Shown here: piece by piece, positions 3,832 through 18,339 of the stretch
Layout: each line of letters begins with the position of its first letter
How positions within the stretch are numbered: the first letter of the stretch is position 1
IMG/VR virus record: IMGVR_UViG_3300042345_000310
Coordinates: 1 to 29,606 of that record
Source: a virus
DNA: 29,606 bases
Reading direction: 5' to 3' (one strand)
Position numbers and translations under genes: made by a program
The notes under the pieces: generated by a model
Database searches by the model: none
What the model saw: only the letters and a program-made list of their open reading frames with translations
What the model was told of the DNA's origin: nothing

Positions 3832-4446
3832 ATGAAGCCAATACTTGTTTACACTTTAGAAAGAACTGGAACCCATTTTGTATCACACTGCCTTAATCAT
3901 ATATTTAATGATGTAATAACTACACACAATAAAAGCAAGGACTCTACAATTGGAACAGATATAAACTATAAAGACTACAAGGTATTTGTAACTGCTAGGG
4001 ATCCAAAAAAGACACTAACGTCTTCGTTGCTTTTTGGAATAAATGAGAATGAGTATGGACACGAAGAGGATCTAACTTTTGTTGCTAAACAACTAATTGA
4101 TAGACAGATAGGTTACTTTAATGACATATTAGATAATGAAAATTTTTACATATTGTCATTTGAAGACTTTACAACAAAGACAAAAGATATTTTTATAAAA
4201 CTTGCAATAGACAATAATTTATCAGAAATTCAAAAAACAAAAATAAAAAATAATAACTTTTTTGATAATCCTCTTTCTGAAATATTAAATAGTCTAACTA
4301 CTGATAAAAGAAGATACCCAAGAGACAAATCAGATAAGGGTGTTGAAAATGTTCAAAAAATTTTAGAGTTGAAAGAAATAAAAGAATATCTTTCTATTTC
4401 AGAATCACTTTATAATAAGGTTATTGATAGATATAACAAACAATAG
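3832..4446 (+). CDS. Sulfotransferase-family protein (PAPS-dependent)
   Basis: A 204-residue P-loop protein. The N-terminal ILVYTLERTGTHFVSHCL matches the 5'-phosphosulfate loop of sulfotransferases. VFVTARDPKKTLTSSLL (about residues 52-68) matches the 3'-phosphate-binding element (RDP...S). Such enzymes move a sulfo group from PAPS to a hydroxyl or amine on a sugar, lipid or protein. No membrane segment is seen, so it should be cytosolic. The start lies 8 bases after the nuclease-like gene; the nearest purine-rich site (AAGGGG) is rather far from the ATG. The APS kinase domain at 12437-13198 could supply PAPS. Confidence 0.78.
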   Translation: MKPILVYTLERTGTHFVSHCLNHIFNDVITTHNKSKDSTIGTDINYKDYKVFVTARDPKKTLTSSLLFGINENEYGHEEDLTFVAKQLIDRQIGYFNDILDNENFYILSFEDFTTKTKDIFIKLAIDNNLSEIQKTKIKNNNFFDNPLSEILNSLTTDKRRYPRDKSDKGVENVQKILELKEIKEYLSISESLYNKVIDRYNKQ

Positions 4447-4475
4447 TTGACAATAGCCGCTAGCGACAGTATACT
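4447..4475 (+). promoter_or_regulatory. Consensus promoter for tRNA-Met
   Basis: A perfect TTGACA at 4447-4452, exactly 17 bases, TATACT at 4470-4475. The -35 box directly follows the sulfotransferase stop codon. Initiation would be near 4482, four bases before the tRNA. Confidence 0.85.
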
Positions 4476-4485
4476 TACTGTATAA

Positions 4486-4559
4486 GGAGCAGTAGCCAAG
4501 TTGGTTAAGGCCCCGAACTCATAATTCGGTTATCGTAGGTTCAAGTCCTACCTGCTCTA
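4486..4559 (+). tRNA. tRNA with anticodon CAT (elongator Met, or Ile-CAU if lysidine-modified)
   Basis: Acceptor GGAGCAG pairs with CTGCTCT (one terminal G-U); discriminator A; no encoded CCA. The anticodon stem CCGAA/TTCGG holds loop CTCATAA. The T-arm GTAGG-TTCAAGT-CCTAC is perfect. The D-arm AGCCAAGTTGGTTAAGGC is normal. Initiator features (an unpaired first position, three G-C pairs in the anticodon stem) are absent. Met versus lysidine-Ile cannot be settled by eye. Confidence 0.93.
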
Positions 4560-4599
4560 CTATCTGGTGTATAATAGTATAGACTAGGAAAGAGATTTT

Positions 4600-5937
4600 G
4601 TGAGCAATAAACTTTTTGTTTTTGATTTAGACGGTGTTTTGGTGGATAGTAAAGAAATACACCACCTATCTTTAAACCAAGCCTTAGAGCAGGTTGACCC
4701 TAAATATACTATCAATGAGGATGATCAAAAGAATACCTTTGAGGGATTAACAACAAATCAGAAATTAAAAATACTTACAGATACACGTGGATTACCAGAG
4801 CACTATTACGATCAAATTTGGAAGTCTAAGCAAGAAAAGTCTATATCTTTTTTTGAGATGCTAAAAAAAGATGAAGAACTTATTCAGATATTTACTACAA
4901 TCAAAAATAATAACATAAAGTTGGCAGTGGCAAGTAATAGTATTAATAAAACCCTTAAGGCCTGTCTAACATCTCTTGGAGTTATTGATATAATTGACTT
5001 CTATATAAGCAATGAGGATGTAGTCAATCCAAAGCCGAGCCCAGATATGTATAATGTGTGCATAGATAAACTTGAAGCAAGCAAGCATTCAACAACAATA
5101 TTTGAAGATAGTTACACTGGAAGAACGGCAGCAATACTTTCTGGTGCACGTCTAGTAACAATAAAAAATAGATCAGACCTAACCTTAACAAAAATACAAA
5201 ATGAATTATCTGGTTTAAAACAAAAGCCAAATGTGTTGATTCCAATGGCAGGCGAAGGATCTAGATTTAGATCGGTTGGTTATCATATGCCCAAACCATT
5301 AATAAATGTAAACGATAAAAGTATGATTGAATTAGTCATAGATAATATAGGTATAGATGCTCACTATATCTTTGTTGCAAGAAAAGAAGACGAAGATAAG
5401 CATAATATATCTGGTCATCTGTCTCTAATGTGCAAAGACTTCACCTTAATATTACAAGACGGCAGATTAGATGGTGCTGCAAAATCTGCACTTTTAGCAA
5501 AAGATTATATAGATAATGATTCACCACTTATTATTGCAAACTCTGATCAGTATGTTGTATGGAATAGTAAGAGGACAATAAAAGAATTTATAAGAAGTGG
5601 TATTGATGGGGGAATCCTAACATTTTCTGCTACTGACAGCAAGTGGTCGTTTGTAAAACAAAATAAGTTTGGATTTGTTGGGGCTGTTGCTGAAAAAAAT
5701 GCTATTAGTGATGAGGCTACGTGTGGCATATATTATTGGAAAACTGGAGCAGACTTTATTAAATATACAAATCAAATGATTTCATCTGGAAATAAAACAA
5801 ATAATGAATTTTATATATGTCCAGTCTACAATGAGGCAATTAAAGATGAAAAGATTATTAAATCTGAAAAGATTTATGAGATGTGGGGACTTGGAACTCC
5901 AGAGGACCTTGCAATATTTTTGGAGAAGCACAATTGA
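4600..5937 (+). CDS. HAD phosphatase / sugar-phosphate nucleotidyltransferase fusion
   Basis: A 445-residue two-domain protein. Residues 1-205 are a HAD hydrolase of the phosphoglycolate/beta-phosphoglucomutase type: FDLDGVLVDS (nucleophile D9, acid D11), VASNS, NPKPSPDMY with the motif III lysine, and FEDSYTG. Residues about 209-445 are a sugar nucleotidyltransferase: VLIPMAGEGSRF with PKPL (NTP loop), NSDQ for metal/sugar binding, and GLGTPEDL at the end. It may make an activated sugar while removing or remodelling a phosphosugar. The GTG start follows AGGAAAGAG; TATAAT lies at 4570-4575. Its TGA overlaps the TTG start of the next gene. Confidence 0.85.
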   Translation: MSNKLFVFDLDGVLVDSKEIHHLSLNQALEQVDPKYTINEDDQKNTFEGLTTNQKLKILTDTRGLPEHYYDQIWKSKQEKSISFFEMLKKDEELIQIFTTIKNNNIKLAVASNSINKTLKACLTSLGVIDIIDFYISNEDVVNPKPSPDMYNVCIDKLEASKHSTTIFEDSYTGRTAAILSGARLVTIKNRSDLTLTKIQNELSGLKQKPNVLIPMAGEGSRFRSVGYHMPKPLINVNDKSMIELVIDNIGIDAHYIFVARKEDEDKHNISGHLSLMCKDFTLILQDGRLDGAAKSALLAKDYIDNDSPLIIANSDQYVVWNSKRTIKEFIRSGIDGGILTFSATDSKWSFVKQNKFGFVGAVAEKNAISDEATCGIYYWKTGADFIKYTNQMISSGNKTNNEFYICPVYNEAIKDEKIIKSEKIYEMWGLGTPEDLAIFLEKHN

Positions 5938-6380
5938 TATTAATAGCGCATAGAGGAAATATCTCTGGTCCAAACCCAGAAACAGAAAACACGGTAGATC
6001 AACTAACAAGTGCTATCAACCTAGGGTTTAATGTTGAAGTAGATATTTGGGCAATAGATGGCAAACTATACCTTGGACACGATGAACCTAAACATTTACT
6101 TTCACCAGAAGACTTTTATAGGATATCTAGTCACTCCTGGTTTCATTGTAAAAATCTAGAAGCCTTAAACCATTTCATCAAATATTTTCCAACATACAAT
6201 TACTTTTGGCATCAATTAGATGATTTTACATTAACAAGTAATAACAAGGTATGGACATATCCAGGAATGGAAGTTGGACCCAACTCAATTATAGTTGATC
6301 TAGAAACAACTGATACAAGAAACTACAATAATATTTATGGAATTTGTAGTGATAAGGTATTGCTACTTAAGACTTCTTAG
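5934..6380 (+). CDS. Glycerophosphodiester phosphodiesterase-like protein
   Basis: A 148-residue protein starting at a TTG that overlaps the previous stop (TTGA). It begins ILIAHRGN, the HR pair of the GDPD/PI-PLC fold. EVDIW follows with acidic metal ligands, then LYLGHDEP with the second catalytic His. Family enzymes are usually 220 residues or more. This short form, with WFHCKN, YFWHQLDDFTLT and WTYPG later, looks like a compact variant seen in aquatic phages rather than a broken gene. It may hydrolyse a glycerophosphodiester or sugar-phosphate linkage. A longer ATG frame from 5883 lies inside the preceding gene and was not used. Confidence 0.68.
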   Translation: MILIAHRGNISGPNPETENTVDQLTSAINLGFNVEVDIWAIDGKLYLGHDEPKHLLSPEDFYRISSHSWFHCKNLEALNHFIKYFPTYNYFWHQLDDFTLTSNNKVWTYPGMEVGPNSIIVDLETTDTRNYNNIYGICSDKVLLLKTS

Positions 6381-6498
6381 GGTGCTTTGGTTCATATGGT
6401 GCAATCTTAGACTTAACACGACCATCTTTATATAGTCTTACAATCCATCCATCTTTTATCTGAATTGGATTAAACGCTGTTGCTTTTTTCTTTGGCAT
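6367..6498 (-). CDS. Small basic protein of unknown function
   Basis: A 43-residue protein: MPKKK at the start, a GWIVRLYKDGRVKSKI beta-hairpin-like centre and a PKHPKKS tail. AAGGGG sits six bases before the ATG. Strong basic charge at both ends suggests nucleic-acid or ribosome association. It lies directly downstream of the Cys-rich gene (start codon two bases after that stop) and overlaps the convergent GDPD-like gene by 14 bases. No family is recognised. Confidence 0.6.
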   Translation of the reverse strand: MPKKKATAFNPIQIKDGWIVRLYKDGRVKSKIAPYEPKHPKKS

Positions 6499-6500
6499 TC

Positions 6501-6830
6501 TTACCCCTTAAATAAACTAGTAATTCTTGTATCTTTTGAATAATCTTTTGCATCTTCTTTTATTGCACTAAACAATGATTCATTTTTTTCTACTGGAACG
6601 CAGTTAGGGACTGGGCTACCATCTTCTCCTGGCTTCATCCCACGCTGGACATACCCATCCCAGCACGGATCAGCCTTCCCAATTGATGAGTCATACATGG
6701 CCATAGCAACCTCTGAATCGGCGTTTGGAGAGCATACAGGGCAGTCTGGGCAGTCTACATTAAGTTCTTTGCAGGTCTCACATTCGCAGCCTTGGTATGT
6801 GCTTGTTGGCATTATTGGATTTTCAGACAT
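6501..6830 (-). CDS. Cys-rich phage protein with a CWDGY...GMK...PNCVP motif
   Basis: A 109-residue protein. The N-terminal third has a cysteine cluster (GCECETCKE, then CPDCPVC) able to bind zinc or a metal cluster. The middle carries DPCWDGYVQRGMKPGEDG followed by PVPNCVP, a short motif that recurs in structural and other proteins of aquatic phages and is of unknown role. The C-terminus is charged. No ribosome-binding site precedes the ATG; TATAAT ends six bases upstream, so it is probably leaderless. It is divergent from tRNA-Arg. Confidence 0.68.
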   Translation of the reverse strand: MSENPIMPTSTYQGCECETCKELNVDCPDCPVCSPNADSEVAMAMYDSSIGKADPCWDGYVQRGMKPGEDGSPVPNCVPVEKNESLFSAIKEDAKDYSKDTRITSLFKG

Positions 6831-6836
6831 TTTATA

Positions 6837-6842
6837 ATTATA
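6837..6842 (-). promoter_or_regulatory. Leaderless -10 box for the Cys-rich gene
   Basis: TATAAT, six bases, then ATG at 6830. The -35 region is weak. It is divergent from the tRNA-Arg promoter, whose -35 starts at 6850. Confidence 0.6.
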
Positions 6843-6849
6843 TCACAGT

Positions 6850-6879
6850 TTGACATACAAGACTTCCTGGGTGTATACT
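6850..6879 (+). promoter_or_regulatory. Promoter for tRNA-Arg and the gene at 6984
   Basis: A perfect TTGACA at 6850-6855, 18 bases, TATACT at 6874-6879. Initiation is expected near 6886, two bases before the tRNA, so little or no 5' trimming may be needed. Confidence 0.82.
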
Positions 6880-6887
6880 TAGCGTAT

Positions 6888-6960
6888 ACCTCTGTAGTTC
6901 AGTGGACAGAACGTTGGACTTCTAAGCCAAGCGTCGCAGGTTCAATTCCTGCCAGGGGTG
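6888..6960 (+). tRNA. tRNA-Arg (anticodon TCT)
   Basis: Acceptor ACCTCTG pairs with CAGGGGT (one T-G wobble); discriminator G; no encoded CCA. The D-stem GTTC/GAAC and T-arm GCAGG-TTCAATT-CCTGC are perfect. The anticodon loop CTTCTAA gives TCT. The anticodon stem TTGGA/GCCAA has an A-G mismatch at the pair next to the loop, unusual but tolerable. It reads AGA, a common codon in this AT-rich genome. Confidence 0.9.
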
Positions 6961-6983
6961 CTAGAAAGACTCTAAGGGGGATT

Positions 6984-7682
6984 ATGGACACTTCTGCAGT
7001 ATATTGGTGTATAGATACTGACCTACCCACTTTAGGACCGTCTAAGCCCATCCTGCCACTTTTTAATAGTGTTGTTAGCGAAAGAAATAAGAATACTGAT
7101 CCTGGATCTTCATATTATAAATGTAAGTCTGCACAAGAAATGTTTAATAATACTTTTATACTTCCATCTACAGAAAATCTTCACATATTGTTTAGTGGTG
7201 GTAAATTATTGAATACTAGAGATGCTAAAAAATTTAGACCAAGAATGCCAGTATTTGAAGATGGTCCTGCAGTAGACTACGACTCTAGATGGCTATTCTT
7301 TTCTGAGGATGACATTAATATTCAGTTAACCCCACCATACTTTCATAAGACAAAGGCATCAGAATATGCCACAGTCCTGAGTGGTGAATTCAATATTAGT
7401 AAATGGTTTAGGCCCATTGTTCCAACATTTTCGTTATGGGATTCTTCAAGAGAATTGGTGATATCTAAGGATGATCCTTTAGCCTATGTTAATTTTATTA
7501 CTGACAAAAAGGTTATATTAAAACAATTCAAAGAAACGGAACAAATTAAAAAAATTATGCATGAATGTGTGATGATGAAAGATAAATTCCCAAACTTGCC
7601 TTTGGCTGAAAACTATAATAGATTTATTTTAAATAAAAAGCACAAAGCCCTAATAGAAGAAATTAAAAATAATTTAGTTTGA
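6984..7682 (+). CDS. Phage protein of unknown function
   Basis: A 232-residue soluble protein. ATG at 6984 follows AAGGGGG at normal distance. An open frame runs further upstream through tRNA-Arg and cannot be coding there. Features seen: an N-terminal VYWCIDTDLP strand, PSKPILPLF, a YYKCKSAQEMFNNTF segment, and a lysine-rich C-terminal helical region. I see no catalytic motif. It shares the tRNA-Arg transcript. It overlaps the convergent gene at 7674 by nine bases. Confidence 0.72.
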   Translation: MDTSAVYWCIDTDLPTLGPSKPILPLFNSVVSERNKNTDPGSSYYKCKSAQEMFNNTFILPSTENLHILFSGGKLLNTRDAKKFRPRMPVFEDGPAVDYDSRWLFFSEDDINIQLTPPYFHKTKASEYATVLSGEFNISKWFRPIVPTFSLWDSSRELVISKDDPLAYVNFITDKKVILKQFKETEQIKKIMHECVMMKDKFPNLPLAENYNRFILNKKHKALIEEIKNNLV

Positions 7683-8231
7683 TATAACTATGTTAGACAA
7701 TACAAACTCTGGAACATGGCCAGTAAACAATACTAAAAGAATTGACTGAAATTCGTTAGGTCCTGAAGGAGATATAAACACTTTCTCTCCTGCTTTAATT
7801 AAGGCAGCACGTCCTGATTTAGCAGACAGGATCTCTTCAGCGTTGGTGACATCATTTGTTATTTTTATTTTAGCACTAGACTCATTAACAAAATATATAA
7901 AAAGATGCTGATCTTCTTTTGGTAATTGTTCTTCTAGTGATAAGTCAACTCCATTTAATCCAAAGATATGTAGTTGCGCTTCTGATTCAAGTATCTCCCC
8001 CAACTTTATCATCTTCTCATAACAAAAGTTAGAAAGTATTCTTTTGGATTCGTCTGAAAGTGGGCTCACTGTCTTTTTATCTACAATTGCTTTATGGGTA
8101 AGTCTAAAAATTCCTGATTTAAAATTACTATTATCTATAACCCATGGAAAAAGTGAGTTAGAGTCTTCATAAAAAACCTTTTGTAGTTTTTTAATGTCAT
8201 CTTCATTTAAAAAATTGTCGTTATATAGCAT
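7674..8231 (-). CDS. Degenerate 2OG-oxygenase-fold protein, probably non-catalytic
   Basis: A 185-residue protein that follows the double-stranded beta-helix plan of small phage 2OG oxygenases: an N-terminal FLNEDDIKKLQ segment and FPW, a central HLFIYFVNESSAKI strand pair, GRAALIKAGEKVFIS, and a closing FQSILLVLF strand. The residues expected for catalysis are missing. The HxD position before the IYF strand reads SLEE..., the distal His is replaced in KVFIS, and the 2OG-binding Arg is replaced in FQSILL. It may be a structural or binding relative of the active enzymes. The start is leaderless-type, five bases after TATAAT. Confidence 0.55.
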   Translation of the reverse strand: MLYNDNFLNEDDIKKLQKVFYEDSNSLFPWVIDNSNFKSGIFRLTHKAIVDKKTVSPLSDESKRILSNFCYEKMIKLGEILESEAQLHIFGLNGVDLSLEEQLPKEDQHLFIYFVNESSAKIKITNDVTNAEEILSAKSGRAALIKAGEKVFISPSGPNEFQSILLVLFTGHVPEFVLSNIVISN

Positions 8232-8236
8232 AATTA

Positions 8237-8268
8237 ATTATAGGGGCACCATATTTCAGATGCCCCTA
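8237..8268 (-). terminator. Hairpin terminator fused to a leaderless promoter
   Basis: TAGGGGCA (8241-8248) and TGCCCCTA (8261-8268) form a perfect eight-pair stem with a 12-base loop, just after the stop codon of the gene at 8273. It is followed by TAATTAATT on the minus strand. The -10 box TATAAT of the next gene (8242-8237) begins within the last two bases of the stem, so ending one transcript and starting the next use the same 32 bases. Confidence 0.6.
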
Positions 8269-8272
8269 CCAA

Positions 8273-8548
8273 CTACTTTGCAGCCTTCTTAGGGGCAGCC
8301 TTCTTAGCAGGTGACTTCTTTACTACCTTAGCAGTCTTTACTGCTCTATCCACTTCTTCTACTGATGGCATCTTGCCAAATGCAGTATCTGAAGGGTTTG
8401 CTGCTCTCAATACGACGGGGACAAGTGCTCCAAGTAGTGAGTATGCTAGTGTCTGCGGATCTGTTACTCCAGAGGCATACATTGCTGTTGCTGCTCCAAG
8501 AACTGATCTTCCGTATGACGCTAGTGCTGCTTTGATTTGCTTATTCAT
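8273..8548 (-). CDS. Holin-like membrane protein with a lysine/alanine-rich tail
   Basis: A 91-residue protein. After a short basic N-terminus (MNKQIKAALASYGRSVLGAA) there are one or two hydrophobic segments (VLGAATAMYASGV and LAYSLLGALVPVVLRAA). The tail is rich in PAKKAAPKKAAK, similar to the C-terminus of the endolysin at 15115-15825. The segment around DPQTLAYSLLGALVPVVLRAANPSD resembles small actinophage membrane proteins found near lysis genes. AGGAGG precedes the ATG. A terminator follows directly, marking the end of the long minus-strand gene run. Holin activity is inference. Confidence 0.6.
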   Translation of the reverse strand: MNKQIKAALASYGRSVLGAATAMYASGVTDPQTLAYSLLGALVPVVLRAANPSDTAFGKMPSVEEVDRAVKTAKVVKKSPAKKAAPKKAAK

Positions 8549-8559
8549 ATTTATTCCTC

Positions 8560-8718
8560 CTAGGATATGATTCTTACTAGTATATCATAGCCAAGCCATA
8601 AACCAATAATTCCTGCGACTCCCGCAAAAACTGGTGGTGCTGGCACTGGCAATTTGAATGCAGCAAATATAATGCCACATCCAAAACCTGTTATAACTGA
8701 TAATATAATTTCTTTCAC
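8560..8718 (-). CDS. XapX-domain (DUF1427-like) small membrane protein
   Basis: A 52-residue GTG-start protein with two membrane helices around a loop reading FKLPVPAPPVFAGVAGIIG. The KLPVPAPP turn followed by a glycine-rich helix is the signature of the XapX family, whose function is unknown. AAGGAA lies before the GTG, which overlaps the preceding stop (GTGA). Its own stop lies inside the ribosome-binding site of the next gene, so the three genes are translationally linked. Confidence 0.78.
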   Translation of the reverse strand: MKEIILSVITGFGCGIIFAAFKLPVPAPPVFAGVAGIIGLWLGYDILVRIIS

Positions 8719-8879
8719 TTGTATTCCTTTTCTGCTAACTCTTTATAATGATTTAAACATACATCTCTTATTTGTGTCTCTGTTGAATATAATTTTTCTG
8801 CTTCAAGTTCACATCCTAATACATGACAAGAATAAAATGCATCAAAGGCAAGATCATTATATGACTTAAAGGTTATCAT
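8715..8879 (-). CDS. 54-residue protein of unknown function
   Basis: ATG at 8879 overlaps the previous stop as ATGA, and its TGA overlaps the next GTG. The sequence is mainly helical and acidic (CELEAEKLYSTET, HYKELAEKEYK) with three cysteines (SCHVLGC and VCLNH), which could be metal ligands. No family is recognised. Gapless coupling on both sides is the main evidence that it is real. Confidence 0.65.
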   Translation of the reverse strand: MITFKSYNDLAFDAFYSCHVLGCELEAEKLYSTETQIRDVCLNHYKELAEKEYK

Positions 8880-9313: not shown

Positions 9314-9542
9314 CTTTTCCTCCTTCTCTAACTAGCATTACTATTGCCCCATTGTCTTCAAGAGCCTTTTTTACCCTAATCATGTATTCAACTGCTTGAA
9401 TTTTGTCATCATGTGATAGAACTACAAAGTCTTTTTCAGAAGCACGAACAGTTATAAAGTGATCATTGTCTACAATAGTCAACTTAAAGTTTTTAGGAGC
9501 ACGGATTGAGTGAAATGCCATACGCATTTGTTCTGTATACAT
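9306..9542 (-). CDS. Small protein of unknown function
   Basis: A 78-residue protein. ATG at 9542 overlaps the previous stop as TGATG and is preceded by GGAGAAGAG; an upstream TTG (9560) is less likely. It contains alternating strands and helices: FKLTIVDNDHFITVRA, FVVLSHDDKIQAVEYMIRVKKALEDNGA, then IVMLVRE. The alpha/beta pattern would suit a small binding domain. I recognise no family. Confidence 0.66.
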   Translation of the reverse strand: MYTEQMRMAFHSIRAPKNFKLTIVDNDHFITVRASEKDFVVLSHDDKIQAVEYMIRVKKALEDNGAIVMLVREGGKDV

Positions 9543-9772: not shown

Positions 9773-9775
9773 AAA

Positions 9776-10270: not shown

Positions 10271-10278
10271 TTTTCTCC

Positions 10279-11577: not shown

Positions 11578-11578
11578 T

Positions 11579-11833: not shown

Positions 11834-12237
11834 TTGCCAGACTTCTTTCTGGCCTTTGCAAGTGCCTCAAAATCCTTAACCTTAGTGTCACCCATATAGC
11901 CCCAGGCATATCCATCATTGATCATCTTATCATTAAGAGATTCTGTATTACCATCTACATATACCCAGCCTAAAATGCGACCATACTTTTCAGATGAGTC
12001 CATCTTCTCAGTTTTGATTACAACAGACTTTGCATCCTTTAGGTGCTTCTTTAGATACTCTTTAGATTCAAGGCCAAGGGCCTTCTCTTTAAGATCCTTT
12101 GTGCGAGACTCTGGGGTATCAATACCCGCCAATCTTACACGGGATTGAAACAAAATATCAAACCCTAAATCAATTAGAACATCAATGGTATCCCCATCTA
12201 CTACGTTCTCTACTTTTCTTACATAATATTCATACAT
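11830..12237 (-). CDS. Staphylococcal-nuclease-like (thermonuclease) protein
   Basis: A 135-residue SNase-fold enzyme. The metal/catalytic set is present: DGDTIDV (residues 14-20), R35, RLAGIDTPE with D40, T41 and E43, and R87 in EKYGRILG. NDKMINDGYAWGY and a C-terminal ALAKARK helix complete the fold. It would cleave DNA and RNA using calcium. There is no signal peptide, unlike secreted homologues, so it acts inside the cell. ATG at 12237 is in a TAATG overlap, with GGGGGAG upstream; an earlier ATG (12252) contains that site and is rejected. Confidence 0.92.
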   Translation of the reverse strand: MYEYYVRKVENVVDGDTIDVLIDLGFDILFQSRVRLAGIDTPESRTKDLKEKALGLESKEYLKKHLKDAKSVVIKTEKMDSSEKYGRILGWVYVDGNTESLNDKMINDGYAWGYMGDTKVKDFEALAKARKKSGK

Positions 12238-12440
12238 TATTTTCTCCCCCATTTAACTTTATTCCAACCACGCTCATGGAAGTAATAAAGGATTGTTTTT
12301 GTAACTACCTCGAAACTTGCGATTGCACCTGCCGTAACTGGCTCTTTGGTTATAAACCAAGCAATAGCAAATGTATCTGCTGTTCCAATTATACGCCAAG
12401 TAATTGCTTTTAGTGCTGATCTTTGTTTGGTTACATTCAT
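12237..12440 (-). CDS. DUF2061 small membrane protein, copy 1
   Basis: A 67-residue protein of the DUF2061 family: RSALKAITWRIIGTADTFAIAWFI, a second helix around GAIASFEVVTKTILYYF, and the characteristic FHERGWNKV ending. Function is unknown; members often neighbour sulfate-activation genes in bacteria. Here it overlaps the APS kinase fusion by four bases (ATGA), repeating that association. A second DUF2061 copy lies at 14030-14230. Confidence 0.85.
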   Translation of the reverse strand: MNVTKQRSALKAITWRIIGTADTFAIAWFITKEPVTAGAIASFEVVTKTILYYFHERGWNKVKWGRK

Positions 12441-13198
12441 ATACCCATCTCCTTGCGCTTTTGTGTAGCAGAGATAGCATGGATATCTGATCCTAAATCA
12501 ACCTGTTCAATATTGTATCCAACATCTCTGCCGTATACAATGTTAGTAATGTTAGGTAGTCTTAGGACTAATGCACCATCCATAAATTCATCCTTGGCAA
12601 TATATTCTTTTACCTGATCAAACTTAAGGGGATCCTTTTCGCTTGTATTGTATGTATTACGGACTCCAAGAAGGACTTGCCCTGTTCTCTTCCCTGCCTC
12701 TTTGTAAAGAGCGTGGTGGCCTTCATGCCAGGGCTGATACCTTCCCAGCATAAGTGTTGTAGGAGCAGACCAGTCGTGTAGCCTAAACTTTTCAATAATA
12801 CGAGATGCCTTTTCTTCAGCGTTTTGTTCATGATTAGTAAAATAGAAATTGGCTTCTTCTGGTCGCTCAAACATTTTATTTGTATCGTCAAATCTACCCT
12901 CAGCAATTGTATCCATAAAAATAAGAATATCTGGCTTACCAAATGCTGCACGAGTTAAATCTGTTGGACAAACAAAATCAACGATTACTGGCGCAACACC
13001 CTGTTTAGAGATAAGTCTTGCTATCTCTCCCATGCGTCGTGCTTGTTCAATTCTATCTTCAGGGCTAAACCCTAAATCTGAATTTACAGTTGCACGGACT
13101 TCATCTGCATTAAGGTGGATAGCATTAATACGCTCTTTTAGGGCTTTTGCTAATTCTGTTTTACCAGAACCAGGTAGGCCAATAATCTGAATAATCAT
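12437..13198 (-). CDS. APS kinase-like / NMNAT-like nucleotidyltransferase fusion
   Basis: A 253-residue bifunctional protein. Residues 1-140 are a P-loop kinase of the adenylylsulfate-kinase type: GLPGSGKT (7-14), LNADEVRATVN for the APS-binding arginine region, and RMGEIARLISKQG. Residues about 147-253 are a cytidylyl/adenylyltransferase: MLGRYQPWHEGHHAL (HxGH nucleotide site) and ISATQKRKEM near the end. The second domain resembles nicotinamide-nucleotide adenylyltransferase more than ATP sulfurylase. The kinase half could make PAPS for the sulfotransferase at 3832. AAGGAA precedes the ATG. It overlaps DUF2061. Confidence 0.82.
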   Translation of the reverse strand: MIIQIIGLPGSGKTELAKALKERINAIHLNADEVRATVNSDLGFSPEDRIEQARRMGEIARLISKQGVAPVIVDFVCPTDLTRAAFGKPDILIFMDTIAEGRFDDTNKMFERPEEANFYFTNHEQNAEEKASRIIEKFRLHDWSAPTTLMLGRYQPWHEGHHALYKEAGKRTGQVLLGVRNTYNTSEKDPLKFDQVKEYIAKDEFMDGALVLRLPNITNIVYGRDVGYNIEQVDLGSDIHAISATQKRKEMGI

Positions 13199-13200
13199 TT

Positions 13201-13422
13201 TTATTCCTTAACTAGTTTTTCTCGCTCATCGATGATGCTAATCATAAACGACATCATGCTGTTATATCCATCTGGGATTGCCATAATTTTATTATAGTGA
13301 TGCCCACAGAATAAAAGGTCTCCGCTAATACCAGTTACCTTAACTAAGGCTTCCGCACTACATCTATCACAACGGTCATGTGGAGATAGTTGCCATTCTT
13401 GCTTAACCTCATCTTTAATCAT
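13201..13422 (-). CDS. DUF7455-type actinobacterial zinc protein
   Basis: A 73-residue protein. DRCDRCSAEALVKV, then DLLFCGHHYNK, give zinc ligands C-x2-C and C-x-H-H. This matches the short DUF7455-type proteins common in Actinobacteria, whose role is unknown. The C-terminal helix (SMMSFMISIIDEREKL) is longer than usual. I place the start at ATG 13422, seven bases after TATAAT, as a leaderless gene; an open frame continues upstream to 13485 but overlaps the FmdB-like gene and lacks a site. It precedes the APS kinase fusion. Confidence 0.75.
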   Translation of the reverse strand: MIKDEVKQEWQLSPHDRCDRCSAEALVKVTGISGDLLFCGHHYNKIMAIPDGYNSMMSFMISIIDEREKLVKE

Positions 13423-13429
13423 TGTAAAC

Positions 13430-13435
13430 ATTATA
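13430..13435 (-). promoter_or_regulatory. Leaderless -10 box for the DUF7455-type gene
   Basis: TATAAT directly after the FmdB-like stop codon, seven bases before ATG 13422. It may restart transcription for the APS kinase/nuclease/thioredoxin part of the gene run. Confidence 0.55.
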
Positions 13436-13621
13436 CTACTTCTTTCTGTTGTCAGTGGAATAATATCCAGAGCCGTTAAAAACAACTCCTACATTAGAGT
13501 ATACACGAACTAGAGTCAGATTGCAAGTCTCACATTTATACCCTGGATCTTCTTCCGAAATAGATCTAATTTTTGTATATCTTGTTCCACAAGGCATACA
13601 GTCATATTCGTATGATGGCAT
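13436..13621 (-). CDS. FmdB-family zinc-ribbon protein
   Basis: A 61-residue protein starting MPSYEYDC, the family signature. It has C-x2-C (CMPCG) and C-x2-C (CETCN) zinc-ribbon knuckles and the typical ending VGVVFNGSGYYSTD. FmdB-like ribbons are of uncertain role, possibly regulatory or RNA-related. The start overlaps the ferredoxin stop as TAATG. The length fits the shorter actinobacterial forms. Confidence 0.9.
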   Translation of the reverse strand: MPSYEYDCMPCGTRYTKIRSISEEDPGYKCETCNLTLVRVYSNVGVVFNGSGYYSTDNRKK

Positions 13622-13926
13622 TACCTATCCTTTATCTCTGGATGATCCATAGTGGTATCTTTTAGTTTGTTTGATCCGTGAAGATTGCCAATCGGTATAA
13701 AAAATTCTTTGTTTATCCTTTTAAATTCTTTTTTATTTTCTGGCAAATCATCTGCCCAATAAATTGCATCTGTCGGACAAGCAGGTTCGCATGCCCCGCA
13801 GTCAATACACTCTTCTGGATTAATGTATAACATTCTTCCACCTTCGTATATACAGTCAACTGGGCATTCTGCAATGCATGATCTATCTTTGACGTCAATA
13901 CATGCGTCAGTTACAACATATGGCAC
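13621..13926 (-). CDS. fdxA: FdxA-type 7Fe ferredoxin
   Basis: A 101-residue ferredoxin of the actinobacterial FdxA type. Cysteines C9, C17 and C21 plus one from the second motif hold the 3Fe/4Fe cluster. C40-x2-C43-x2-C46-x3-C50-P (CIDCGACEPACP) forms the 4Fe-4S site. CPVDCIYEGGRMLYINPEEC is nearly identical to cellular FdxA proteins. It would carry electrons to host or phage enzymes, for example P450s or reductases. The GTG start overlaps the preceding stop (TAGTG). A host-type ferredoxin is an uncommon phage cargo. Confidence 0.93.
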   Translation of the reverse strand: MPYVVTDACIDVKDRSCIAECPVDCIYEGGRMLYINPEECIDCGACEPACPTDAIYWADDLPENKKEFKRINKEFFIPIGNLHGSNKLKDTTMDHPEIKDR

Positions 13927-14030
13927 TACTTCTTCTTTGCTTTAACTGTCCAGACTGGAGCCTTAAGTTGATCCCCGCCCCATTCGTATCCAAGTGCCTT
14001 TACAACAAACTTAATAATTTTAATTCTCAT
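13926..14030 (-). CDS. 34-residue basic micro-protein
   Basis: The frame begins with ATG in a TAATG overlap with the DUF2061 gene and ends in a TAGTG overlap with the ferredoxin. It is basic (MRIKIIKFVVKALG at the start, VKAKKK at the end) with GYEWGGDQL in the middle. No family is recognised. Perfect coupling at both ends supports translation. Confidence 0.62.
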   Translation of the reverse strand: MRIKIIKFVVKALGYEWGGDQLKAPVWTVKAKKK

Positions 14031-14230
14031 TATTTTACCTTATGTCCGAACTTAGCCCAGACCCTCTCATGTAGAAAATATCCAAGGGCTTCCCACCCAA
14101 TATAAATAAGAGCACCTAAACTAGCATACTCCCATTCACCAGTAAATAAATAAATAACTCCAGCAACACCAACAAGGTGAAAGGTTTCCCAACTTGCTGT
14201 TTTTAGCAGTGTTCTTTTAGTTGATTCCAT
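14030..14230 (-). CDS. DUF2061-like small membrane protein, copy 2
   Basis: A 66-residue protein related to the gene at 12237-12440. KRTLLKTASWETFHLVGVAGVIYLF and GALIYIGWEALGYFLHERVWAKF keep the two-helix plan and the HERVW end motif, while the usual TWR is replaced by SWE. It is leaderless-type: TATAAT, six bases, ATG. It heads the ferredoxin/FmdB unit. Divergence from copy 1 suggests separate acquisition or an old duplication. Confidence 0.78.
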   Translation of the reverse strand: MESTKRTLLKTASWETFHLVGVAGVIYLFTGEWEYASLGALIYIGWEALGYFLHERVWAKFGHKVK

Positions 14231-14236
14231 AATACA

Positions 14237-14242
14237 ATTATA
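14237..14242 (-). promoter_or_regulatory. Leaderless promoter of the DUF2061/ferredoxin/FmdB operon
   Basis: Extended TGG-TATAAT, six bases, then ATG 14230. It is squeezed between the oxygenase stop (14249) and the start codon. Confidence 0.65.
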
Positions 14243-14248
14243 CCAGCC

Positions 14249-15115
14249 TTACTTGTCTTTGTCAAGATCAGATAGTGGGCTTACGCCCTTTCTTTGGTGA
14301 ATGTCTGCATCCTCTGCAGTAGGAATTTCAGACCAAGGTATTGGAGGTAAACCAATTTTTGTATTCTCATCTAAATAAAGTTTGTCAAACATGTATCTTC
14401 TTTGCATGGCAAAGTTGTTAAACGCTTCACTTTCTCTAAAAAGTTTACCAAACTGAAACATATCATTAATTTCTTTTGGCCTTGATTGAGTTGGGCTTTC
14501 ATTTGGAACGCACCAGTGATTTTTGTTAATCAAGTGAAAAAATAATGCCTGGTAATATTCGGCTGGATCGTCATTATTCCAAGATGGTCTATAATGATAA
14601 TCAAACTGTGGCTGGCAGATAATAGCCTGATTTGGCTTGGTAATAAAGTTTGTATTACCAGCAACAAATCCCCAGTCACGGTTTCCGCCAATATGTAAGT
14701 CAACCATGTATGGTCCTGGAGCGTGATCAATGTGCAAAGGCAGTCTTGGAACTCTACCTTCAGAGGTTATCTGATGGTGAGCATACATATGATATCCAAA
14801 CTCAACGTCTTCAACACCAACTAAAATCTTAACCTTTTCTACAGCATAATCAATAAACTTTTGAGGTATATTAACTCCCTCTTCCCACTTATTCATCTGA
14901 TGAGAAAAATCTACGTTGTCAAGTTTATATGAGGTTAATATCTCTACTAATTCATCAAACATCTCTTTAGGAAAGAAATCCTCTACCAAGAATGGCTCAA
15001 AAAATACTACATCATCTGTTAGTGTTTTTTCAACAGCAATATACTCTTCCTTAGAAGAATACTTCCAGTCAATGTTATCAGGATTTGGATGATTTGCATA
15101 CAGAGGTGTTATCAT
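14249..15115 (-). CDS. 2OG-Fe(II) oxygenase, long form
   Basis: A 288-residue hydroxylase. LPLHIDHAP gives iron ligands H128 and D130. FDYHYRPSW supplies the distal His near 174 and Arg176. The strands LHIGGNRDWGFVAGN and QALFFHLINK form the rest of the double-stranded beta-helix. About 100 residues N-terminal and 90 C-terminal of the core are family-specific. The substrate is unknown. The start overlaps the endolysin stop (TAATG), so it is expressed with lysis genes; acting on cell-wall or virion material is possible but unproven. Confidence 0.75.
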   Translation of the reverse strand: MITPLYANHPNPDNIDWKYSSKEEYIAVEKTLTDDVVFFEPFLVEDFFPKEMFDELVEILTSYKLDNVDFSHQMNKWEEGVNIPQKFIDYAVEKVKILVGVEDVEFGYHMYAHHQITSEGRVPRLPLHIDHAPGPYMVDLHIGGNRDWGFVAGNTNFITKPNQAIICQPQFDYHYRPSWNNDDPAEYYQALFFHLINKNHWCVPNESPTQSRPKEINDMFQFGKLFRESEAFNNFAMQRRYMFDKLYLDENTKIGLPPIPWSEIPTAEDADIHQRKGVSPLSDLDKDK

Positions 15116-15825
15116 TACTTTGCCTTCTTTTGAGCAACCTTTTTAACTGGCGCTGCCTTTTTAGCAGGGGTAGTTGATGCTCCTGGGCAGTTTCCTGGGA
15201 ATCCACTTGTAGGAACATTTCTTCCAAGTGATGGACAGTATGTTAGTGGAACAACCTCTCCAGTATTAATTTTATCAGAGGCCAACTTGTTTAGTAGTGG
15301 AGCATTTTCTTCACCAGTATAAACTGGGCGACCCCAGCCAACAATGCCATTAATTAACTTCTTCTTGTTGTTCTTGACATATGCACGAGTTTTTTCTACG
15401 CACATTCCGCCGTTGCGTTGATCTCCCTTTGCAGTTCCTGAAGTATTTCCTTCAATAACTTGAATGGTTCCATCTCCGTTATTCTTAATGCAAATACCAA
15501 CGTGTGAAATGCGATTTACACCATCTTCTGGGAAATCAAAATAAATCCAGTCTCCTGGTGTTGGATCATCATTACGAGCATCTGCCCAACGATTATTCTT
15601 CTTAAACCAATCTGATGCTGCTACTGTTGATGCAGACTTTGGATACTTCTTTGCATCTAATCCAGATGTAAATGCACACCAAGAAACAAATGACTGGCAC
15701 CATGGCTGAAAATTCATTCCAGTCCATTTTCCATACTTTGTTTCATTATCTTTTGGACCTTCGATGGTCCCAACTTCTTTCTTTGCAACCTCTATGATTG
15801 CTTCTAGACTACCTTTTGTTGCCAT
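15115..15825 (-). CDS. CHAP-domain endolysin
   Basis: A 236-residue peptidoglycan hydrolase. The N-terminal CHAP amidase/endopeptidase domain (residues about 8-165) has catalytic C43 (QPWCQSFVSW), H108 (ISHVGI) and E125/N127 (VIEGNT), with GDWIYF in between. A linker with YCPSLGRNVPTSGFPGNCPG may be a small wall-binding hairpin; its two cysteines could form a disulphide. The tail is PAKKAAPVKKVAQKKAK, very basic. There is no signal peptide, so release needs a holin. AGGAGG at 15833-15838 is optimal, and a promoter lies at 15853-15858. Confidence 0.92.
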   Translation of the reverse strand: MATKGSLEAIIEVAKKEVGTIEGPKDNETKYGKWTGMNFQPWCQSFVSWCAFTSGLDAKKYPKSASTVAASDWFKKNNRWADARNDDPTPGDWIYFDFPEDGVNRISHVGICIKNNGDGTIQVIEGNTSGTAKGDQRNGGMCVEKTRAYVKNNKKKLINGIVGWGRPVYTGEENAPLLNKLASDKINTGEVVPLTYCPSLGRNVPTSGFPGNCPGASTTPAKKAAPVKKVAQKKAK

Positions 15826-15852
15826 CTTTAGTCCTCCTTAGACCTTTTTATT

Positions 15853-15858
15853 ATTATA
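15853..15858 (-). promoter_or_regulatory. Extended -10 promoter for the endolysin
   Basis: TGG-TATAAT on the minus strand with a leader of about 20 bases carrying AGGAGG. No clear -35 box. Confidence 0.6.
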
Positions 15859-15864
15859 CCATAT

Positions 15865-15954
15865 TTAGTAAATATAATTTGTCGACTTTTTGATTCTTTT
15901 ATATTTTTTGGGGTGTCTGACAACAAACCATAAAAACTTAATCTTTTTTATCAT
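15865..15954 (-). CDS. 29-residue cationic mini-protein, paralogue of 18237-18320
   Basis: It begins with ATG inside the 3' end of the SGNH gene (17-base overlap), with AGGATGGG before it. The peptide is strongly basic and aromatic: an IKKIKFLWFVV start, KKYKRIKK in the middle and a final YIY. The same plan is seen in the mini-gene upstream of the carbamoyltransferase. An amphipathic, membrane-associated or toxin-like peptide is possible. Two similar copies flanking one two-gene unit argue against chance. Confidence 0.5.
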   Translation of the reverse strand: MIKKIKFLWFVVRHPKKYKRIKKSTNYIY

Positions 15955-16819
15955 AGCCCATCCTATTAAACTCATTAATGAAATTTTCTGCGACCCTTTT
16001 ATTCCAGCCAGATCCTGGATGAATCCCATCTTGTGCAACTGACCAATAAGGAACATCCTCATCTATTTTATTTGAATCATACGCCTTATCTTTATCATTA
16101 AACGAAAAAGAACCATCGATCTTAAAGTAATTCCTAAATTTTATATTTTCAAGAACATCGTTTGCTGGCTTACTCCAATTAGACCAAATTAGTTTTATGC
16201 CTAAATAATCACAGACATCCTCTAATATCCTTATATGCTCAATGGCATTAAATGCACCATACTCTTCACGATAGTTTAATGTATAAACTTTGTGAGTTAT
16301 AAACTTTTTGGGAGCGCTTATCCATTGTGGATGAACTAAACAACTGACTATCTTTTTGGATGTTGGGTCATATTGTAAATCTCTTGCAAAATCTGGGAAT
16401 AATACAAATATAAATTTAGGAGAGCCATACTTCCTAATAAAAGTAAGTATATTTTTTACTATAAGTCTTGTAGATGCCCCAGTTGAAGATACATTATAAA
16501 AACTATCTATAGATAGTTCTTTAGAAATTTGCTTATACCACGTCAGATCTTCTGGTAGACCCTCCCCCATAGTAATAGAGCATCCAGCAAAGAGAATGCT
16601 ATCCTTATCTTTGTTGAATTCACTGAAATGATTAGATCTAAAACCATCTTTATTTATTTTATATACAACCTGTGGACCTTCTATAACTCCAAAGCATCCT
16701 ATATTATCTGTATATAAATAATCATTTTCTGTTCTGTGTAATTTTGCATATTCACTTTGTTCTCTTGTTAGTTCTGTCCCAACTAAAAAGTCATCATCAA
16801 ACTCTTTTAAAAAATTCAT
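15938..16819 (-). CDS. SGNH/GDSL hydrolase
   Basis: A 293-residue esterase-type protein. Block I is ILFAGCSITMGEG with Ser81 in GCS. Block II follows as YNVSSTGAS (Gly oxyanion residue), and block V as QDGIHPGSGW carrying the Asp/His pair. Such enzymes remove or transfer acyl groups on carbohydrates. It overlaps the carbamoyltransferase stop (ATGA), so the two probably modify the same glycan. No signal peptide is seen, so it likely acts in the cytoplasm. An N-terminal 70-residue segment precedes block I. Confidence 0.82.
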   Translation of the reverse strand: MNFLKEFDDDFLVGTELTREQSEYAKLHRTENDYLYTDNIGCFGVIEGPQVVYKINKDGFRSNHFSEFNKDKDSILFAGCSITMGEGLPEDLTWYKQISKELSIDSFYNVSSTGASTRLIVKNILTFIRKYGSPKFIFVLFPDFARDLQYDPTSKKIVSCLVHPQWISAPKKFITHKVYTLNYREEYGAFNAIEHIRILEDVCDYLGIKLIWSNWSKPANDVLENIKFRNYFKIDGSFSFNDKDKAYDSNKIDEDVPYWSVAQDGIHPGSGWNKRVAENFINEFNRMGYDKKD

Positions 16820-18237
16820 GTAACTATCCTACTTCCATAATGCACTTCCCATTCAGCAAGATCATTTCCATCATTTAGCAGTGGCTGGCCCTTAATATTT
16901 AAACTTGTATTAAGTAATACTGGAACACCAGTCTGCAAAAAAAATTTATTAAGAACTCTCCATAGGCCGTAGTGTTGTTCTTTTGTAACTGTTTGAACTC
17001 TGGAAGTTCCATCGACATGGACAACTGAAGGTATCTTGTCTGGCTTTAAGCATTTAACCGTATACTGCATATAAGGGCTTTCAAAGTCCATATCAAACCA
17101 TTTATACGCATACTCAGCCATAACTACAGGGGCAAATGGTCTAAATAATTCTCTCTGCTTAATAAGATTAACCTTGTCCTTAATGTCTGGATCTCTTGGA
17201 TCTGCAAGTATGCTTCTGTTTCCCAATGCTCTTGGACCATATTCTGCTCGGCCTGATGCTACTGCTACAATTCCGTCTTTTAATATACCGTCAACTATTT
17301 CCTGAATTGGATATTTTCCTCCAAGATCATAACCAAGATATGGATTCTTCCATTCAAGATGCTTACCATATAATGCTGCTGCTGCTCCTAAAGAACTTCC
17401 AGCGTCTCCAGGGTTTGGCATAATCCAAATCATATCAAATATTTTCCACAGCAAAGTATTGGCTGAAGAGTTAAGGGCACATCCACCCATAAAAACTAAA
17501 TTCTTTTTGCCCGTAATTGACTTTGCCATACGCATAAAATCGTTAAGTCTTTGTTCGTAAACCATTTGGACTGCTGCTGCTATATCAAATTTATCTTCTT
17601 CTGATATCCAGCCCCAATCTGTAATGCCCTTATGAAAGTTATACTTTTGTTGATCGTAAGAAGGAAAATACTCATTAACTTTTTTATAATGCTTTGTCCA
17701 GTCTCCATATGCAGCCATACCCATCATGATGTATTCTTCTTGGTTTGGCATTAGCCCTATAAGTTGAGTAAATGCAGAGTAGAACAATCCAAAACTCACT
17801 GGATAGTTCTGCTTATATTTTAGTTTAATGTTGTTTCCTTCTCCAACCCAAACTGTAGAAGTATTGTATTCCCCCATTGCATCCAAAACAACAATTACTG
17901 CATTGTTAAAATCACTTGTAAAGTATCCTGCTGCTGCGTGTGAATAATGATGGCTAAATGATTTTCTAGGAATTCCTGGTATATTAAATCTAGGTTTCCA
18001 TTCTCCTACACCACCCTTTAGAGCCAGCCTAGAGGCCTTTAGAAGGGGTTTTTCATAGTAAGCAATATGATCTGGTCTACCATACTGCAAAGCATCTTTT
18101 ATTAAACTATCATTGACATACCAGTCATTTTTTTGTTTGCTATATCTTTCTGCATGCCCTGCAAAAAGTATCTCGCCATCCTTAATTAAAGAAACAGATG
18201 CGTCATGAGATGTCTCATTTATGCCAAGTATAATCAC
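16816..18237 (-). CDS. NodU/TobZ-family carbamoyltransferase
   Basis: A 473-residue enzyme that moves a carbamoyl group from carbamoyl phosphate, through carbamoyl-AMP, to a hydroxyl group, usually on a sugar. The N-terminal ASKHA-like domain has GINETSHDAS (H11), HAERYSKQK and SHHYSHAAAGY. GGCALNSSAN and PGDAGSSLGAA bind ATP. The C-terminal part reads SGRAEYGPRALGNRSILADPR and LNTSLNIKGQP. It is shorter than NodU (about 560 residues) because the end is trimmed. The GTG start overlaps the stop of the mini-gene (TAGTG). It probably decorates a phage or host surface glycan. Confidence 0.93.
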   Translation of the reverse strand: MIILGINETSHDASVSLIKDGEILFAGHAERYSKQKNDWYVNDSLIKDALQYGRPDHIAYYEKPLLKASRLALKGGVGEWKPRFNIPGIPRKSFSHHYSHAAAGYFTSDFNNAVIVVLDAMGEYNTSTVWVGEGNNIKLKYKQNYPVSFGLFYSAFTQLIGLMPNQEEYIMMGMAAYGDWTKHYKKVNEYFPSYDQQKYNFHKGITDWGWISEEDKFDIAAAVQMVYEQRLNDFMRMAKSITGKKNLVFMGGCALNSSANTLLWKIFDMIWIMPNPGDAGSSLGAAAALYGKHLEWKNPYLGYDLGGKYPIQEIVDGILKDGIVAVASGRAEYGPRALGNRSILADPRDPDIKDKVNLIKQRELFRPFAPVVMAEYAYKWFDMDFESPYMQYTVKCLKPDKIPSVVHVDGTSRVQTVTKEQHYGLWRVLNKFFLQTGVPVLLNTSLNIKGQPLLNDGNDLAEWEVHYGSRIVT

Positions 18238-18332: not shown

Positions 18333-18339
18333 CCATTTG

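What the first reader, a model, noticed from the sequence alone, without database searches (positions are those of the whole stretch)
3832..18237. Possible phage-encoded sulfation, carbamoylation and glycosylation toolkit
An APS kinase domain (12437-13198) and a PAPS-type sulfotransferase (3832-4446) occur in the same window with a GT61-like enzyme, a HAD/sugar-nucleotidyltransferase fusion, a GDPD-like protein, a NodU-type carbamoyltransferase, an SGNH hydrolase and several 2OG hydroxylases. Families are read from motifs. The inference is that the phage makes or boosts PAPS and modifies a glycan or wall polymer, for example to change receptor properties or protect its virion. A sulfation system in an actinophage would be new to my knowledge.
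Basis: partly seen in the sequence, partly recalled or inferred. Interest (0 to 1): 0.75.

Follow-up and report, generated by a model that had tools for sequence, protein, structure and literature searches.

The report
Phage sulfation operon with compact kinase
This lake phage carries a sulfate-transferring enzyme and a small two-part kinase that, in several unrelated phages and once in a single fused bacterial gene, sits right beside such enzymes, so phages probably make the activated sulfate they need to decorate some molecule with sulfate.

Summary
Both proteins are real. The ORF at 3832-4446 folds as a PAPS sulfotransferase (ST) and keeps the phosphate-binding Arg/Ser. The ORF at 12437-13198 is an APS-kinase-like domain, about 30 residues short, fused to a minimal NadM-like adenylyltransferase; it is common in a lake actinophage lineage. 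My first reading, NAD salvage, fell to a rival. Elsewhere the kinase fusion lies directly beside STs: 14 of 45 ST-bearing kinase loci within 100 bp (1.03 expected), 5 of 11 clusters at 90% identity (0.89 expected, p 0.0002); controls within 300 bp, terminase 0 of 79 and NodU 0 of 80. One Rhizobium gene fuses ST + kinase + adenylyltransferase. No ATP sulfurylase or PAPS reductase was found in 50 kinase-bearing records. Best reading: a compact phage enzyme makes PAPS for phage sulfotransferases. Inferred, not shown: that the NadM-like half makes APS, what is sulfated, and the host. Against it: many kinase loci show no ST, and Casjensviridae pair it with NADAR. Phage cysC and phage STs are in print; I found no paper joining them in ten searches. 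The carbamoyltransferase, GT61 and others are not shown to belong to one system.

The parts
3832..4446 (+). Sulfotransferase (ST), 204 aa; likely 5'-phosphosulfate loop at residues 9-16 (LERTGTHF), 3'-phosphate site Arg56 and Ser64 (roles recalled)
   Evidence: Held-out profile E 3.4e-8; AF2 pLDDT 83.8; all 50 structural rows shown are sulfotransferases, Z up to 12.5; Arg56/Ser64 at least 90% conserved in 26 STs
12437..13198 (-). Kinase-nucleotidyltransferase fusion, 253 aa, common in the lineage
12773..13198 (-). APS-kinase-like domain, residues 1-142 (P-loop GLPGSGKT; Asp32, Arg35, Phe44, Arg49, Phe75 invariant in the family)
   Evidence: Z 15.6-18.2 to APS kinases, gluconate kinase 15.0; invariant in 65 of 65 sequences
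12440..12772 (-). Minimal HxGH adenylyltransferase-like domain, residues 143-253 (GRYQPWHEGH, YGRDVGY, ISATQKR)
   Evidence: NT-only profile: NadM 2qjt E 6.5e-10, MJ0541 8e-10; NMNAT models match 23 of 23 members, far below cut-offs for the window
12237..12440 (-). DUF2061 small membrane protein overlapping the kinase gene end; link to sulfation not shown
   Evidence: PF09834 81.2 bits; within 400 bp of the kinase in 128 of 131 lineage loci with both
14030..14230 (-). Second DUF2061 small membrane protein; link not shown
   Evidence: PF09834 45.1 bits
4600..5937 (+). HAD phosphatase + sugar nucleotidyltransferase fusion next to the ST; possible glycan-precursor enzyme, link not shown
   Evidence: HAD_2 95.3 and NTP_transferase 38.5 bits
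1302..2282 (-). GT61 glycosyltransferase; link not shown
   Evidence: PF04577 59.6 bits; no homologue in 239 lineage loci
16816..18237 (-). NodU-type carbamoyltransferase, common in the lineage; probably a separate system
   Evidence: PF16861 177.6 and PF02543 115.5 bits; ST within 300 bp in 0 of 80 NodU loci

Best explanation
The kinase fusion is a compact phage enzyme that supplies PAPS (activated sulfate) to phage-encoded sulfotransferases. The C-terminal adenylyltransferase half is inferred to join ATP and sulfate into APS, and the N-terminal APS-kinase-like half to phosphorylate APS to PAPS. The sulfotransferase at 3832-4446, or other STs in relatives, then moves the sulfate to an acceptor, most likely a glycan. 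In another phage clade the same pair sits among glycosyltransferase-like genes, in one case behind a tail-spike gene, which points to a virion glycan or a host surface glycan. Shown: ST fold and the conserved Arg/Ser, APS-kinase fold, recurrent adjacency and one natural fusion. Inferred: every reaction, the acceptor, the host, and that the NadM-like half makes APS.
For: Window ST is a sulfotransferase by held-out profile and fold. Kinase half has the APS kinase fold with Arg35/Phe44/Arg49 invariant (that these bind APS is recalled). Adjacency, with an ST profile trained on no ST within 2.5 kb of a kinase and kinase ORFs barred from counting as STs: of 164 kinase loci 45 hold an ST, 14 of these 45 within 100 bp, 1.03 expected, 0 of 5000 placements; by 90% clusters 5 of 11, 0.89 expected, p 0.0002; by 70% clusters 3 of 6, 0.74 expected, p 0.0058; controls within 300 bp: TerL 0 of 79, NodU 0 of 80. 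STs over a Pfam cut-off that end within 57 bases of the kinase start or overlap it: L157, L144, L008, L045, L050. Natural fusion ST + kinase + NT in Rhizobium sp. BK376, three Pfam domains over their cut-offs. Genome G077 of that order: an ST (profile E 1.6e-9) overlaps the kinase-NT gene by 17 nt. From the ST side (seeds biased): 20 of 78 loci hold the kinase, 16 of 20 within 310 bp. 18 long contigs: all 11 with an ST have the kinase, the 3 without kinase have no ST, one-sided Fisher 0.043. PAPS reductase 0 of 50 and ATP sulfurylase 0 of 50 kinase records. acI strains reported to lack assimilatory sulfate reduction (PMC5301498 passages).
Against: The NT half is closest to NMN adenylyltransferases; no ATP sulfurylase appears at E<=1. 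The APS-kinase domain lacks about 30 residues including the C-terminal lid region, which carries APS contacts in classical enzymes (recalled); the Asn of the classical ENxRR motif (recalled) is Gln52 in the window, though L157 and L393 keep Asn. At 300 bp the 70% cluster test is not significant (3 of 6, 1.36 expected, p 0.054). In Casjensviridae the neighbour is a NADAR gene and no ST over a cut-off was found. Two cellular kinase-NT loci have no ST nearby (L350, L354). 119 of 164 kinase loci have no ST in the DNA held; 15 of 27 close records and 4 of 15 kinase-bearing long contigs show none. 58 of 78 ST loci show no kinase in the flank. In the window ST and kinase lie 8 kb apart on opposite strands.
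Confidence: 0.65

Rival explanations
1. NAD salvage: the kinase makes NMN from nicotinamide riboside and the NT half makes NAD, like a reversed NadR, to counter host NAD-depleting defence.
For: NT half is NadM-like; phage NadR joins an adenylyltransferase to a P-loop kinase (PMC9503650 passages); a NADAR gene overlaps the start of the kinase gene in three Casjensviridae phages.
Against: Kinase half is APS-kinase-like; NADAR in 3 of 50 kinase records, all Casjensviridae; repeated ST adjacency and the ST fusion have no place in NAD salvage; best NMNAT match covers only positions 7-72 of 116 of the NT profile.
Confidence: 0.12
2. Sulfur AMG: a phage cysC that boosts host assimilatory sulfate reduction during infection, as freshwater phage cysC is read in print.
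For: 62 cysC genes in freshwater phages were read this way (PMC10914622 passages); the APS_kinase Pfam model hits 48 of 48 members.
Against: PAPS reductase in 0 of 50 kinase records; acI strains reported to lack the pathway, though the host here is unproven; STs as neighbours.
Confidence: 0.1
3. The enzyme makes a different 3'-phospho nucleotide donor, for example a phosphoramidate donor as in the Campylobacter capsule pathway where a CysC-like kinase acts on a CDP-linked compound (recalled), and the ST-like proteins transfer that group.
For: Shortened lid and unusual NT partner leave the substrate open; APS-kinase-like kinases with other substrates exist (recalled).
Against: The structural rows for the ST are sulfotransferases, many solved with PAP or PAPS; the NT is adenylyltransferase-like rather than of the fold recalled for that pathway.
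Confidence: 0.08
4. Kinase and STs are unrelated cargo that share variable islands, so adjacency reflects shared islands, not function.
For: The window's ST has no homologue in 239 lineage loci; in the window the two genes are 8 kb apart; most kinase loci show no ST.
Against: Adjacency test with TerL and NodU controls; fusion; kinase is widespread in the lineage, not island cargo.
Confidence: 0.05

Closest known systems
Animal PAPS synthetase (PAPSS1/2): APS kinase followed by ATP sulfurylase
   Same: Same domain order, kinase first and adenylyltransferase second (order recalled; 1x6v aligns over residues 1-253, with rmsd 16.8); APS kinase fold
   Different: 253 aa against about 600; kinase lid region missing; second half NadM-like, no PF01747 match
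CysC / freshwater phage cysC auxiliary genes (PMC10914622)
   Same: APS_kinase domain in freshwater phages; whether these are the same genes was not checked
   Different: There read as assimilatory sulfate reduction; here linked to sulfotransferases and without PAPS reductase
Phage NadR / NadM NAD salvage enzymes (PMC9503650)
   Same: P-loop kinase joined to a HxGH adenylyltransferase
   Different: Domain order reversed (NadR order recalled), kinase APS-kinase-like, STs as neighbours
Phage sulfotransferases of cyanophages S-SKS1, S-SRM01, S-SCSM1 and OM43 phages (PMC10580990)
   Same: The cyanophage STs are 27-39% identical to the kinase-linked ST of L157
   Different: No cyanophage is among the 9 phage records with a kinase match; function of phage STs called unclear (PMC10580990 passages)

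Membership tests
PAPS-dependent sulfotransferase superfamily | Fold of PAPS sulfotransferases | tested here: met
   Best 2reo Z 12.5, rmsd 3.9, 184 aligned; all 50 rows shown are sulfotransferases
PAPS-dependent sulfotransferase superfamily | 3'-phosphate site: Arg and Ser eight residues later (spacing and role recalled) | tested here: met
   Arg56 and Ser64, at least 90% conserved in 26 STs
PAPS-dependent sulfotransferase superfamily | 5'-phosphosulfate loop, PxSG[ST] type (recalled) | tested here: inconclusive
   LERTGTHF in the window, PRSG/PRTG in many relatives; Glu replaces Pro
PAPS-dependent sulfotransferase superfamily | Pfam curated cut-off for PF00685 | tested here: not met
   18.3 bits against 22; a profile of phage STs, window held out, gives E 3.4e-8
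APS kinase (CysC) | P-loop and APS kinase fold | tested here: met
   57.8 bits against 21.1; Z 15.6-18.2 against 15.0 for the next family
APS kinase (CysC) | Conserved Arg/Phe/Arg that bind APS (recalled from Penicillium) | tested here: met
   Arg35, Phe44, Arg49 in 65 of 65; role recalled
APS kinase (CysC) | Full-length domain with C-terminal lid | tested here: not met
   Match ends at profile 91/152; 143 aligned residues span 176 of the reference chain
APS kinase (CysC) | NCBIfam apsK equivalog cut-off | tested here: not met
   63.6 bits against 138.7
APS kinase (CysC) | PAPS-forming activity | not testable with these tools
   Needs an enzyme assay
ATP sulfurylase (PF01747) | Match to the family model | tested here: not met
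   Not among the 24 families that any of 48 members match; 0 of 50 records
NMN adenylyltransferase (NadM) | Curated family cut-off | tested here: not met
   23.5 bits against 397 and 23.6 against 127 for the window
NMN adenylyltransferase (NadM) | Nicotinamide-binding segment in the later part of the domain (recalled) | tested here: inconclusive
   Best profile match stops at position 72 of 116; no model of the NT half alone was compared
NodU carbamoyltransferase | Both Pfam domains over cut-off | tested here: met
   PF16861 and PF02543

The most novel reading that the evidence does not exclude
The fusion is a complete miniature PAPS synthase of a new architecture, in which a NadM-like adenylyltransferase has become a new type of ATP sulfurylase, so that phages can sulfate their tail-spike glycans or the host surface even in hosts that have lost sulfate activation.
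Probability: 0.37. Interest if true: 0.9.

Novelty: new variant of a known kind. Interest (0 to 1): 0.74.

Why it matters
Phage cysC genes are read in print as sulfur-nutrition helpers, and phage sulfotransferases as genes of unclear function. Linking the two would explain both at once, give a testable 253-residue PAPS-forming enzyme of unusual build, and add sulfate to the chemical modifications that phages make. It also predicts sulfated phage or host glycans in lakes and the sea, which mass spectrometry can look for.

Tried and rejected
NAD salvage was my own first reading, from the NadM-like half and the NADAR neighbour in Casjensviridae; it became a rival when ST-like genes turned up beside the kinase in other phages and NADAR was found in only 3 of 50 records. 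The private window ST (one relative, a contig 99.99-100% identical to the window where both are held; none in 50,697 phage records) first looked like no co-occurrence; that search was too narrow.

The adjacency test was run four times. One search used ST seeds picked because they were adjacent. One search was meant to be trained on non-adjacent STs only, but one search showed that 9 of its 48 training STs lay near kinases in terminase and NodU loci, and one search showed that it counted the kinase ORF of L116 as an ST. One search removed the first fault but kept the second, and gave 7 of 32 within 100 bp (0.63 expected), dereplicated 2 of 7 (0.12, p 0.0072) and 2 of 4 (0.08, p 0.0024), L116 wrongly among them each time. 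removes both faults, starts from Pfam-found STs, and is the one reported. Its distances use the longest start codon, so some 0 values are small overlaps; near-identical contigs are among its 14 loci, which is why the cluster figures matter. The ST-side count is biased, because its five seed STs were kinase-adjacent. The 14 loci were chosen because they hold both genes, so their ST-kinase adjacency is no independent count.

A motif search for STs was too crude. I hoped DUF2061 would tie to sulfate genes in bacteria: an APS-kinase-like neighbour in 0 of the 30 loci returned, so no link. L133 and L111 neighbours are counted nowhere as STs; L351 (kinase-only; next gene PF13469 E 0.043, below cut-off) and L352 (kinase-only, a TPR-ST about 4 kb away) are not counted as support. 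The VIA list for the kinase model barely tests residues after 209, and no model of the NT half alone was made. Host was not determined. In notes I wrote 17 of 20 for a distance count; the figure, 16 of 20, is used. One search counted 239 loci, several from the same contigs.

Odds changed in this check: best explanation 0.66 to 0.65, novel case 0.38 to 0.37, because the clean cluster test is somewhat weaker than the first version claimed; the shared-island rival rose from 0.04 to 0.05.
Full report
WHAT WAS CLAIMED AND WHAT IS THERE. The window is a virus record of 29,606 bases. WhiB and a terminase nearest to Streptomyces phages at about 54-55% identity support an actinophage. GT61, HAD-nucleotidyltransferase and NodU are over their Pfam cut-offs; GDPD is weak; SGNH has no match; one 2OG oxygenase passes.

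THE SULFOTRANSFERASE. Pfam sees it only weakly (18.3 bits, cut-off 22). IMG/VR gave one relative, on a contig 99.99-100% identical to the window where both are held, so probably the same virus; 50,697 phage records gave none. A profile of nine STs from other phages, window left out, gives E 3.4e-8. Its AlphaFold2 model has pLDDT 83.8, and all 50 structures shown are sulfotransferases, best Z 12.5 with rmsd 3.9 over 184 residues. Arg56 and Ser64, the expected 3'-phosphate pair (recalled), are conserved in at least 90% of 26 STs.

THE KINASE FUSION. Residues 2-85 match the APS kinase model, but only its positions 4-91 of 152. The model (pLDDT 89.1) superposes on APS kinases with Z 15.6-18.2 and on gluconate kinase with Z 15.0; 143 residues span 176 of the best chain, so some 30 residues, the lid region, are gone. 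Arg35, Phe44 and Arg49 are invariant in 65 of 65 sequences; that they bind APS is recalled. The C-terminal part is a minimal HxGH adenylyltransferase-like domain whose nearest solved relatives are NMN adenylyltransferases (2qjt E 6.5e-10, 1f9a 8e-10); no ATP sulfurylase appears at E<=1.

CO-OCCURRENCE. Of 27 close records (window included), 12 have a PF13469 or PF00685 match at E<=0.01 and 8 have one over the cut-off; over all 50 kinase records searched it is 16 and 9. Of 18 long contigs, 15 have the kinase and 11 an ST; all 11 have the kinase, and the three without kinase have no ST (one-sided Fisher 0.043). The ST profile used for the 18 included kinase-adjacent STs.

ADJACENCY. STs over a Pfam cut-off end within 57 bases of the kinase start, or overlap it, in L157, L144, L008, L045 and L050. 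For a fair count I trained an ST profile on Pfam-found STs and their relatives, none within 2.5 kb of a kinase, and barred kinase ORFs from counting. Of 164 kinase loci, 45 hold an ST in the DNA held and 14 of these have one within 100 bp; 1.03 are expected and 0 of 5000 random placements reach 14. By clusters of 90% kinase identity it is 5 of 11 (0.89 expected, p 0.0002), by 70% clusters 3 of 6 (0.74 expected, p 0.0058). Within 300 bp the cluster figures are 5 of 11 (2.06, p 0.0116) and 3 of 6 (1.36, p 0.054). Control genes: an ST within 300 bp of TerL in 0 of 79 loci (13 hold an ST, 6 within 1500 bp) and of NodU in 0 of 80 (23 hold an ST). Starting from five kinase-adjacent STs instead, 20 of 78 new loci hold the kinase, 16 of 20 within 310 bp on the same strand; 58 do not.

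FUSION AND CELLULAR COPIES. In Rhizobium sp. BK376 one 555-aa ORF carries Sulfotransfer_2 (31.3 bits, cut-off 22), APS_kinase (55.1) and CTP_transf_like (22.3, cut-off 21) in that order. In cells the family is rare: 4 of 397 genomes of that order, two of them with the kinase half only, and 2 of 398 of that phylum, one genome in both counts. In G077 an ST (profile E 1.6e-9) overlaps the kinase gene by 17 bases; in L350 and L354 no ST was found, L354 lying among polysaccharide-type genes by eye.

A SECOND CONTEXT THAT HINTS AT THE TARGET. I looked at 14 loci of a T4-like clade (11 distinct kinases), chosen because they hold both genes. By homology to L386, a GT9-like gene precedes the ST in 14 of 14 and a small ORF lies between ST and kinase in 14 of 14; two further glycosyltransferase-like genes are found in 10 and 11, a conserved downstream gene in 12 and a terminase in 6. 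In L386 a 1509-aa protein with an S74 tail-spike chaperone domain lies upstream of the block and the terminase downstream is confirmed by Pfam; the three glycosyltransferase-like genes have no Pfam match, so that label is mine from motifs. The L090 clade has a GT25 gene upstream and L157 a GT2 gene downstream. This fits sulfation of a glycan, perhaps on the virion, but does not show it.

WHERE WOULD THE SULFATE COME FROM. None of 50 kinase records has ATP sulfurylase (PF01747) or a PF01507 protein (PAPS reductase, a search that rings in 14 of 14 control genomes); many of these records are fragments. So APS must come from the host or from the NT half. Four acI strains lack assimilatory sulfate reduction (PMC5301498, passages); that acI is the host here is not shown.

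WHAT IS KNOWN. Freshwater phage cysC (62 genes) is in print as an assimilatory sulfate reduction gene (PMC10914622, passages), and deep-sea viral cysC too (PMC9529941, passages). Phage sulfotransferases are in print with function called unclear (PMC10580990, passages). I found no paper joining the two in ten searches of the held library (listings and a few passages seen); those most to the point are, and subscription papers are mostly absent from it.

VERDICT. The enzyme is not a plain APS kinase and the wider toolkit is not shown to be one system. Reactions, acceptor and host remain inferred.

Noticed in passing
window 12237-12440 and 14030-14230: Two DUF2061 small membrane proteins; the first overlaps the kinase gene, and its homologue lies within 400 bp of the kinase in 128 of 131 lineage loci with both. 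DUF2061 genes also follow the kinase in distant phages L125 and L133. Function unknown.
   Followed up: partly
L082, L083, L085 (Casjensviridae): A NADAR gene overlaps the start of the kinase-NT gene; no sulfotransferase over a cut-off was found. The enzyme may have another partner there.
   Followed up: partly
L351:156-644 and L352:7059-7490: Kinase domain without the adenylyltransferase half in bacterial genomes; in L351 the next gene is weakly sulfotransferase-like.
   Followed up: partly
L329:748-2582: Three small, different sulfotransferase-like genes in tandem in a 115 kb phage contig; one of the three is over the Pfam cut-off.
   Followed up: no
L386:10899-11144 and equivalents: A conserved small ORF sits between ST and kinase in 14 of 14 loci of the T4-like set; it could be an acceptor or a scaffold.
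   Followed up: no
window 618-691, 693-766, 4486-4560, 6888-6961, 18339-18412: Five tRNA genes, four of them in the left part of the window near genes with few lineage homologues.
   Followed up: no
window 13621-13926: A 4Fe-4S ferredoxin with a homologue in only 2 of 239 lineage loci.
   Followed up: no
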